A stretch of 64,000 nt of DNA. It comes from Sipunculus nudus (taxonomy: Eukaryota > Annelida > Sipuncula > Golfingiida > Sipunculidae). Positions 30,301 through 33,300 of the stretch are shown piece after piece. The notes below the pieces were generated by a model that saw only the letters and a list, made by a program, of their open reading frames with translations, was not told the DNA's origin and searched no databases. The translations under genes were made by a program, and so were the position numbers. Position 1 is the stretch's first letter; every line of letters begins with the position of its first letter. The stretch covers positions 1,698,501-1,762,500 of the forward strand of contig CM049320.1 of assembly GCA_026874595.1 (NCBI GenBank), written 5' to 3'.

Positions 30301-33300
30301 CTAATGACACTGTTCCGTGCAGTAAAACTAATGACACTGTTCCGTACAGTAAAACTAATGACACTGTTCCGTACAGTAAAACTAAGGACACTGTTCCGTA
30401 CAGTAAAACTAAGGACACTGTTCCGTACAGTAAAACTAATGACACTGTTCCGTACAGTAAAACTAATGACACTGTTCCGTACAGTAAAACTAATGACACT
30501 GTTCCGTACAGTAAAACTAATGACACTGTTCCGTACAGTAAAACTAATGACACTGTTCCGTACAGTAAGAAAACGTTTGCAAATGACCGTAAGAATAAGG
30601 AATCATTATTTTCCTCATAGACTTAATCTGGTCTGTGGTCACAATTGTATCTAGGTCCACACATGAACGTTAACCGGAGATCTTTAAATGACCTTTGACC
30701 AGAACCTCTTGGAAAACAGAATCACAACTGCACTTACTTGACATAACAAAACATGATGATGAGCCCGACAATGTGGAACTTCATAATGATACTGATATAC
30801 CAGGTGTAGGTGAGGCACTGAAAGGGCGACACGTATATGTATCATTTCTCAATGTTTAACATATTAAAGAAGAAGATACTTGCCCTATAAATAAAAAAAA
30901 ATAAATAAAATAAGATAAACAAATAATAATAATAAAACACCACAAGGATGCTTTAAACTAGCCGTATGTCTTTTTACCTTTGATCTTTAATAAATATGCA
31001 CATATTGTTTTAGACAGTTGATTACGGGGAGAGTTACTTTAAAGGTTTAAAATTTATAATGAAAGTCAGCAAAACCCATAAAATACCTAATTATCACAAA
31101 ACACCAAAAGGAATACCTGTAATTAATGTTTAGGTTTTGACGAGAATTGAATTCTCGGTGAAAATCAATTTTTTAATGATACAACTGGGTTTCTGTGACT
31201 GCTGTTTCAATCTAATATTCATGGACTTTGCCAGGAAGCGTACTTAAACGCGATATTATATTGGTTAAAACATGTTTTTCTGTCGATTTTAAGCAAAGCT
31301 ATCATATTTCTAGTAAGATATCAGGGCGACATTAAAAAGAATCTAATATTTATATATGAGTGGATTTTGCCGAGCATCGAACTCGGGCACGATAATCTAT
31401 CAGTAAGTAGTTATAGTGGGTTTTGTGAGAATCCATTAAATCTCTGGTAAATTACCAAGGCTACTCTAAAAGTAAACAAATGGAAGGCGCCAATACCTTT
31501 TATACGACCCATCTAAGACAGGCGTATAATAAATACTATTTTAAAGATATATTATAACCTATTACTTACTTTCCCGATATCTTTCTTGTTACACTTACCG
31601 GTTCATTATTACGGACAAGATCAACCAGCAGCAGAAGATTGACCCACCAATTTTTCCGGCAGTTGACGCCATCGCTTACTTCTTCAGGAACAAACGGACC
31701 TGAAGCCACATATTTGTAAAACCCGGCGAAGAAACCAATAAACAGCATGTAGGGAACGATCAACCTGCAACGAAAGCATTAAACAAAATGTAGACGCAGT
31801 CACCCAGCTAAGACACAAATAAACAATATGTAGCCAAAAATCAACCTGCAAAGAAACTAATAAACAACATGCAGTCGACAATCAACCTGCGAAGAAACCA
31901 ATAAACACCATGTAGTCGACAATCAACCTGCGAAGAAACCAATAAACAACATGTAGTCGACAATCAACCTGCGAAGAAACCAATAAACACCATGTAGTCG
32001 ACAATCAACCTGCGAAGAAACCAATAAACACCATGTAGTCGACAATCAACCTGCGAAGAAACCAATAAACACCATGTAGTCGACAATCAACCTGCGAAGA
32101 AACCAATAAACACCATGTAGTCGACAATCAACCTGCGAAGAAACCAATAAACACCATGTAGTCGACAATCAACCTGCGAAGAAACCAATAAACACCATGT
32201 AGTCGACAATCAACCTGCGAAGAAACCAACAAACACCATGTAGTCGACAATCAACCTGCGAAGAAACCAACAAACACCATGTAGTCGACAATCAACCTGC
32301 GAAGAAACCAACAAACACCATGTAGTCGACAATCAACCTGCGAAGAAACCAACAAACACCATGTAGTCGACAATCAACCTGCGAAGAAACCAATAAACAC
32401 CATGTAGTCGACAATCAACCTTGCGAAGAAACCAATAAACACCATGTAGTCGACAATCAACCTTGCGAAGAAACCTATAAACACCATGTAGTCGACAATC
32501 AACCTGCGAAGAAACCTATAAACACCATGTAGTCGACTATCAACCTGCGAAGAAACCTATAAACACCAAGTAGTCGACAATCAACCTGCGAAGAAACCAA
32601 TAAACACCATGTAGTCGACAATCAACCTGCGAAGAAACCAATATACACCATGTAGTCGACAATCAACCTGCGAAGAAACCAATAAACACCATGTAGTCGA
32701 CAATCAACCTGCGAAGAAACCAACAAACACCATGTAGTCGACAATCAACCTGCATGAAACCAATAAACACCATGTAGTCGACAATCAACCTGCGAAGAAA
32801 CTAAACAATGCCTACAGGCCTAATGGGAACCTGTGCAATAGGATATACATCAGGTATAATGCTTCAATGCCGGACCATTACTTTTCAAGTACACGTGTAA
32901 CATGTATATGAACAATGCTAATACTAAACATTTTGAATAAAAAACAATTACACAAACATCATTGCCGAAATACTGGCATGGGTGCACACAACACAAACAT
33001 GATCGTAGTCTTGTATACGACAAAACTGTCCGAGATATATACATACGCCCAATTTCAGGCTGAAATATCAAACCCCTCCTGAGAAATAAGCAAGGACATA
33101 CACATTGCAAAGATTATTGTGGTGGTGCCACCAGACTTGTTTACGACAAAGCTATTTAATATGTATAAATATGCACCATTTCAGGCTGATATATCTAATC
33201 CCTCCTGAGAAATTAGCAGGCACATACACTGTGCAAAAGTCATTGTAGGTGGCGTTACCAGTCTTGTGAACGAGAAAGTCATCAAAGGAGCATGGACAGG

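What the first reader, a model, noticed from the sequence alone, without database searches (positions are those of the whole stretch)
31599..32815. Array of about 25 decoy splice acceptors cloned from gene 2 exon 9
The 41-bp unit is a copy of the exon 9 start with its acceptor (CAG|GTTGAT and the following coding bases through TTTATTGGTTTCTTCG). The array begins at the exon edge, so this is amplification in place, not insertion. Every copy keeps a pyrimidine tract and AG. Each 41-bp copy would shift frame if included, so choice of acceptor should matter to the protein. Copies far from the exon are nearly identical, implying recent growth or homogenisation.
Basis: partly seen in the sequence, partly recalled or inferred. 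Interest (0 to 1): 0.88.

Follow-up and report, generated by a model that had tools for sequence, protein, structure and literature searches.

The report
Intron whose splice sites were copied
In one intron of an animal gene, the sequence at both splice sites has been copied over and over into tandem repeats, so the splicing machinery meets dozens of look-alike sites; similar repeats are known from amphioxus, and here they also occur in a neighbouring gene copy and in unrelated genes of the same genome.

Summary
The array is real. Twenty-five 40-42 bp monomers abut the acceptor (31764) of a 166-nt exon of an NRF-6-like gene on the minus strand. The unit matches the first 39 exon bases at 34 of 39; 24 of 25 monomers end in AG; 22 of the 24 AG-bearing decoys score near the true acceptor on a small matrix; all 24 would lead to a stop codon. 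It was amplified in place from the exon edge. Boundary arrays also occur in unrelated myosin genes. These are the 'mirages' described in amphioxus, here in a genome that is probably lophotrochozoan. Splice edges are not copied more often than introns at large (4 of 49 and 3 of 108 edges; 19 of 562, 112 of 567 and 123 of 1121 intron windows), so the simplest reading is pervasive local tandem duplication that sometimes captures a junction and is tolerated. Use of the decoys is untested. Recurrence at one intron in two of three paralogs is unexplained.

The parts
31599..31764 (-). Exon E8 of gene 2 (the finding's exon 9), 166 nt; its first 39 bases are the source of the unit
   Evidence: AG before, GT after; in frame with E7 and E9; same length as gene 1 exon 10405-10570
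31765..32811 (-). Acceptor array: 25 monomers of 40-42 bp (31765-32789) and a partial copy
34700..34760 (-). Diverged relic of about 1.4 acceptor units in the same intron
   Evidence: local score 35 against a maximum of 20 in up to 300 random tiles of the window
37519..37620 (-). Exon E7 of gene 2, 102 nt; its last bases and donor are the source of the 42-bp unit
37328..37533 (-). Donor array, block next to exon E7 (42-bp units)
   Evidence: TRF 4.9 copies; monomers
36770..37325 (-). Dispersed repeat that separates the two donor blocks
   Evidence: 39 further long matches at 79-86% identity on many contigs
36363..36721 (-). Donor array, distal block (42-bp units)
   Evidence: TRF 8.5 copies; monomers; unit found at this locus only
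38735..38790 (-). Single diverged copy of the acceptor edge of exon E5
   Evidence: score 22, 0 of 200 shuffles; alignment
38301..38345 (-). Single diverged copy of the acceptor edge of exon E6
   Evidence: score 20, 1 of 200 shuffles; alignment
24645..25023 (-). 78-bp units upstream of the last exon E14, resembling its start (weak)
   Evidence: TRF; score 17, 5 of 200 shuffles; alignment
9799..9920 (-). Gene 1: 35-bp array that ends at the acceptor of exon E9, intron side only
   Evidence: score 17, 0 of 200 shuffles
10405..10570 (-). Gene 1 exon that matches E8; no copies found at its acceptor (score 12, 112 of 200 shuffles as good)

Best explanation
It is a 'mirage': a minisatellite born by tandem duplication across an intron-exon boundary, then amplified and homogenised in place. 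Probable birth (inferred): exchange or slippage between the exon-internal stretch TTTCTTCGC and the similar end of the intron, TTTCGTTGC(AG), put AG|GTTGAT after the first 39 coding bases, so that the pyrimidine tract of each later copy is made of coding bases. Growth by unequal exchange lengthened the intron; the donor at the other end went the same way and was later split by a dispersed repeat. No function is needed: in this genome short intron stretches are often duplicated locally, and a duplication across a junction survives because one working junction is enough. The true acceptor is probably chosen by pairing across the 166-nt exon with its donor, and mis-spliced products, all with premature stops, would be removed by nonsense-mediated decay (both inferred).
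For: Unit equals exon start at 34 of 39 and the array abuts the exon. Donor array with the exon E7 end in the same intron. Own arrays in the same intron of gene 3. Boundary arrays in unrelated myosin genes, 3 of 108 edges, against 0 of 102 exon-middle comparisons. Edges are copied no more often than intron windows. Published precedent in amphioxus (PMC3087553; PMC3902484).
Against: Two of three paralogs have arrays at both ends of the same intron, which a plain background rate of 3 of 108 to 4 of 49 per edge does not readily give. The exon-side copies alone have decayed and one lost its AG, which selection against competing decoys would also explain. No RNA data.
Confidence: 0.75

Rival explanations
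1. A functional decoy or poison array: the copies bind splicing factors or divert part of the transcripts to decay, so that array length tunes the output of the gene.
For: 24 of 25 monomers keep AG; 22 of 24 decoys score 3.9-7.4 against 6.8 for the true site; all 24 lead to stops. Donor units score up to 10.4 against 8.6 for the true donor.
Against: Sequence identity among young copies explains the kept AGs without selection. Gene 1 does without. Amphioxus cases were reported as splicing normally. Similar arrays sit at unrelated genes at about the intron background rate.
Confidence: 0.08
2. This intron is a hotspot: something about its two splice junctions (for example likeness between the exon start, rich in pyrimidines, and the intron end) seeds duplication again and again.
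For: Gene 2 and gene 3 each have acceptor and donor-type arrays in the same intron, with units of 41/42 bp and 59/47-55 bp; each acceptor unit fits the exon of its own gene best (29 against 16 and 17; 33 against 17 and 21), and the intron parts of the donor units are not alike (844 of 2000 shuffles as good).
Against: Three paralogs only, one of them without arrays. Exon E7 of gene 3 was not seen. An old array shared by both genes and since overwritten is not excluded.
Confidence: 0.25
3. Relic of intron birth by tandem duplication of an AGGT-containing exon stretch.
For: The spliced junction reads GGAG|GTTG, a proto-splice site.
Against: The intron lies at the same place between exons of identical length (102 and 166 nt) in gene 1, which has no array there, so the intron is older.
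Confidence: 0.02
4. Assembly artefact: copy number inflated or the array misplaced.
For: Nearly identical tandem copies are hard to assemble; the authors of the amphioxus globin paper state that one such array was aberrantly assembled in the draft.
Against: Diverged exon-side copies, a relic, a separate donor array and similar arrays elsewhere in the assembly do not fit an artefact; the exact copy number could.
Confidence: 0.03

Closest known systems
[quoted passage not shown] splice-site repeats also in PGBD5 and, as cited, troponin C)
   Same: Tandem copies that span an exon-intron boundary, at acceptor or donor, many with AG or GT; homogenised inside and diverged at a border; paper passages
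   Different: Here both ends of one intron are amplified, the acceptor array has 25 monomers (BflGb6: 6 and 3), a paralog has its own set at the same intron, and the genome is probably not a chordate's
Tandem whole-exon duplication and mutually exclusive exons
   Same: Exon sequence repeated inside an intron; the muscle myosin gene of this genome has four tandem copies of one exon
   Different: The copies hold 39 of the 166 exon bases and no donor of their own, so they are not exons
Intron gain by tandem duplication of AGGT (Rogers model, as cited in PMC3087553; potato RdRp case seen in a search listing only)
   Same: Tandem duplication around an AG|GT junction
   Different: The intron is shared by the paralogs and so is older than the array

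Membership tests
Mirages (boundary minisatellites) | Tandem repeat whose unit spans an intron-exon boundary and contains exon sequence | tested here: met
   34 of 39 exon bases in the unit plus AG; donor unit with the exon E7 end
Mirages (boundary minisatellites) | Repeat units carry AG or GT splice signals, many but not necessarily all | tested here: met
   AG at 24 of 25 acceptor monomer ends; GT in 10 of the 12 donor monomers listed, true donor included
Mirages (boundary minisatellites) | Inner copies homogenised, border copies diverged | tested here: met
   0-2 differences in 22 copies, 4-11 in the three nearest the exon; the far border is not decayed, so met on one side only
Mirages (boundary minisatellites) | Length instability between haplotypes or somatic cells | not testable with these tools
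   one assembly, no reads
Mirages (boundary minisatellites) | Regular splicing undisturbed | not testable with these tools
   no RNA data
Whole-exon duplication | Copies contain a complete exon with acceptor and donor | tested here: not met
   copies end after 39 exon bases
Intron gain by AGGT duplication | Intron absent from paralogs | tested here: not met
   same intron position and flanking exon lengths in gene 1
Recursive (ratchet) splice sites | Acceptor directly followed by a donor of type GTRAGT (consensus recalled) | tested here: not met
   monomers listed begin GTTGAT except the one at 31805 (GGGTGA), not GTRAGT
NRF-6-like protein family (host gene) | N-terminal NRF domain PF20146 followed by an acyltransferase-type membrane domain | tested here: inconclusive
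   PF20146 at 38.8 bits, cut-off 27, on 46232-46561; no Pfam hit on the joined membrane-domain exons (one of its two queries flawed); the acyltransferase part is recalled

The most novel reading that the evidence does not exclude
Boundary amplification at this intron is recurrent and not accidental: in two paralogs both splice sites of the same intron grew into arrays independently, because exon edge and splice signal are alike enough to seed exchange. In a lineage with this habit, introns lengthen by copying their own splice sites, and the spliceosome passes over some two dozen copies of similar local strength in favour of the one next to a definable exon, which would make such loci natural tests of exon definition.
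Probability: 0.25. Interest if true: 0.72.

Novelty: new member of a known kind. Interest (0 to 1): 0.52.

Why it matters
Boundary-spanning minisatellites are described in amphioxus. My ten searches of the open-licence library (one search was about myosin exons) brought up no paper that I recognised as describing them outside cephalochordates; I judged most entries by title and start of abstract, and the library leaves out most subscription journals. Here they occur in several unrelated genes of a genome that is probably lophotrochozoan, so the habit would not be peculiar to cephalochordates. Because most decoys and the true site score alike, such loci are a natural experiment on how one splice site is picked from some 25, and a possible source of new introns and of length variation at exon edges.

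Tried and rejected
Intron birth by AGGT duplication: rejected, the intron is shared with gene 1. Whole-exon duplication: rejected. Recursive splicing: rejected on the sequence after AG. Common origin of the 41-bp and 42-bp units (both hold GTTTATT): score 14, reached by 23 of 1000 shuffles (maximum 21), not convincing. Enrichment of duplications at splice edges: not found.

Taxon markers. Mollusc haemocyanin PF14830: no hit, and the tool's controls did not ring either, so nothing follows. Four exons of the muscle myosin gene against solved structures: two score best with chains that I recall as scallop, then squid; one has squid first with vertebrate and scallop chains within 2 bits; one has vertebrate Myosin-6 first and squid third. 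The four tandem copies of the loop-1/switch-1 exon fit cluster 3 of PMC3912159 (passages only), reported there for molluscs and an annelid; the paper predicts mutually exclusive myosin exons in all bilateria except chordates. So lophotrochozoan is likely and a chordate unlikely; the species is not known.

Weak points of the survey. Edges in the myosin loci are ends of Pfam matches, not proven splice sites. One search examined 122 edges with the tandem-exon locus L027 included; 11 had 0 of 60 shuffles as good, 5 of them in L027. L027 was left out. The myosin donor at C6:7947162 scored 27, but its copy lies in intron sequence and it drops out when only the 45 inner bases are used. Not all 75 matches lay in the 20 stretches fetched. 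In one search, 8 of 49 window edges had 0 of 100 shuffles as good, some at low scores (11-16) that I do not count. Gene models are partial: the E2-E3, E4-E9 and later exons do not join in one frame, so exons or borders are missing.

Full report
What is there. On the minus strand the window holds two NRF-6-like genes of matching structure: of 12 exon pairs with both ends placed, seven have identical lengths (338, 192, 97, 102, 166, 139, 193 nt). The finding's exon is 31599-31764, here called E8 of gene 2. Inside the intron upstream of it stand 25 monomers of 40-42 bp. The consensus equals the first 39 exon bases at 34 positions and is closed by AG, so each monomer of the body starts AG|GTTGAT like the exon itself. 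Shuffled units reach 18 at best in 5000 trials; the real one scores 29. Two units searched in the whole 1.43-Gb assembly matched only this place (13 matches). The exon is the source: the same coding segment, in an exon of the same length, is found in gene 1 and in a third paralog whose exon lies 7.6 kb beyond the window.

What the copies would do. 24 of 25 monomers end in AG. Splicing exon E7 to any of the 24 AG-bearing decoys gives a stop 46 to 130 nt after the junction, 21 of them at 46 nt, because the next unit is read GCA GGT TGA; only 31764 stays open. On a small matrix built from 25 other acceptors of the two genes, 22 of the 24 decoys score 3.9-7.4, two with an extra A score -1.8 and 0.2, and the true site scores 6.8; the monomer start without AG scores -5.4. 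So this local signal does not tell most decoys from the true site. The matrix is small, and among the 314 AGs of the intron several outside the array score higher.

The other end of the intron. Exon E7 ends CACCGATACTGGAG|GTAGGCC. From that point 42-bp units with the same exon end and donor run into the intron. One search lists 12 monomers, the true donor included, 10 with GT; one degenerate unit next to the exon fell below its threshold. They lie in two blocks, 37328-37533 and 36363-36721. The stretch between them is a dispersed repeat (39 further long matches at 79-86% identity, a lower bound), so one array was probably split. The 42-bp unit matched only this locus (8 matches).

The paralogs. 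Gene 3 (locus L011, plus strand; it probably begins inside the window near 57688) has at the same exon an acceptor array of 59-bp units, six copies by TRF, and further up the intron two blocks of 47-55 bp units reading CACCGCTACTGGAG|GTGAGTCC. Each acceptor unit is most like the exon of its own gene (29 against 16 and 17; 33 against 17 and 21), and the intron parts of the two donor units are not alike by score (844 of 2000 shuffles as good). Of seven CAG sites upstream of the gene 3 exon examined, six lead to a stop and one, inside a unit and not at a unit start, stays open; the phase was assumed. Gene 1 shows no copies at either edge of this intron by the scan (acceptor 112 of 200 shuffles as good, donor 10 of 200). 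Exon E7 of gene 3 was not seen, so its donor-type array is tied to that exon only by sequence: it can be read HRYW, as the exon end of gene 2 is.

How general. In gene 2 the E8 acceptor and E7 donor are strong (0 of 200 shuffles), the E5 and E6 acceptors have single diverged copies (0 and 1 of 200), and the E14 acceptor is weak (5 of 200); gene 1 has one intron-side array at its E9 acceptor (0 of 200) and a marginal match at its E10 donor (1 of 200). In 19 ten-kb stretches of unrelated myosin genes, 3 of 108 edges have the outer 45 matched bases copied in the neighbouring intron, and 0 of 102 exon-middle comparisons do. One is an 82-bp array of about six acceptor copies, one a 35/61-bp donor array, one an 83-bp donor duplication. 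Against this, random 60-nt windows have local copies of score 20 or more in 19 of 562 (gene 1 introns), 112 of 567 (gene 2, other introns) and 123 of 1121 (anywhere in the myosin loci), and the window's splice edges in 4 of 49; an earlier, smaller sample gave 5 of 186, 47 of 191, 35 of 368, and 0 of 34 for exon middles. So splice junctions are caught about as often as, or less often than, the sequence around them, and no targeting of junctions needs to be assumed for the habit as a whole.

What it is called. [quoted passage not shown] the authors judge that regular splicing is not disturbed and propose them as a source of introns (PMC3087553: section 16 read; passages). A paper on PGBD5 adds that gene and cites troponin C (PMC3902484, one passage). 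The 2002 Adh paper is not held. The present case meets the structural tests; instability and normal splicing could not be tested. The host is probably not a chordate: its muscle myosin gene has four tandem copies of the loop-1/switch-1 exon, a cluster that PMC3912159 (passages) reports for molluscs and an annelid while predicting such exons in all bilateria except chordates. Of four myosin exons, two score best with chains that I recall as scallop and squid, one is a near tie and one favours a vertebrate.

How it probably works. Shown: source, register, copy number in this assembly, stop codons, donor counterpart, paralog, other genes, background rate. Inferred: birth by exchange between TTTCTTCGC in the exon and TTTCGTTGC at the intron end; growth by unequal exchange; choice of the true site by exon definition; removal of mis-spliced products by decay. 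Unexplained: why this one intron has arrays of both kinds in two of three paralogs, and why only the exon-side end of the 41-bp array has decayed. Selection against decoys next to the exon would explain the latter, and so would growth at the far end; the data do not choose.

Noticed in passing
28950-30568: 27-bp tandem array, 60 copies at 97% matches, in a later intron of gene 2; since 27 is a multiple of three it is open over 483 codons on the minus strand. It lies about 170 bp from the nearest exon.
   Followed up: no
48524-51529: 3-kb array of about 60-bp units (TATAG-rich, strong GC skew) upstream of gene 2.
   Followed up: no
L033:3676-3866 and L033:4433-4809: Myosin gene: donor-edge array (35/61-bp units, CACAG|GTACATAC) and, about 600 bp further, a 31-bp array of 12 units with a similar edge (GCACAG|GTAAGA).
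   Followed up: partly
L041:3433-3964: Myosin gene: 82-bp acceptor-edge array of about six copies, TTACAG|ATGAAGGATGAGAGG, abutting the exon.
   Followed up: partly
L043:2469-2760: 31-bp array, 9.4 copies, whose unit contains both an acceptor-like TATTTCAG|G and a donor-like CTGTAAGG; relation to an exon not examined.
   Followed up: no
L027: Muscle myosin gene with four tandem copies of the exon ending in NNNSSRF (loop 1 to switch 1), typical of mutually exclusive exons.
   Followed up: partly
36770-37325: Dispersed repeat of about 550 bp with at least 39 relatives at 79-86% identity across the assembly.
   Followed up: partly
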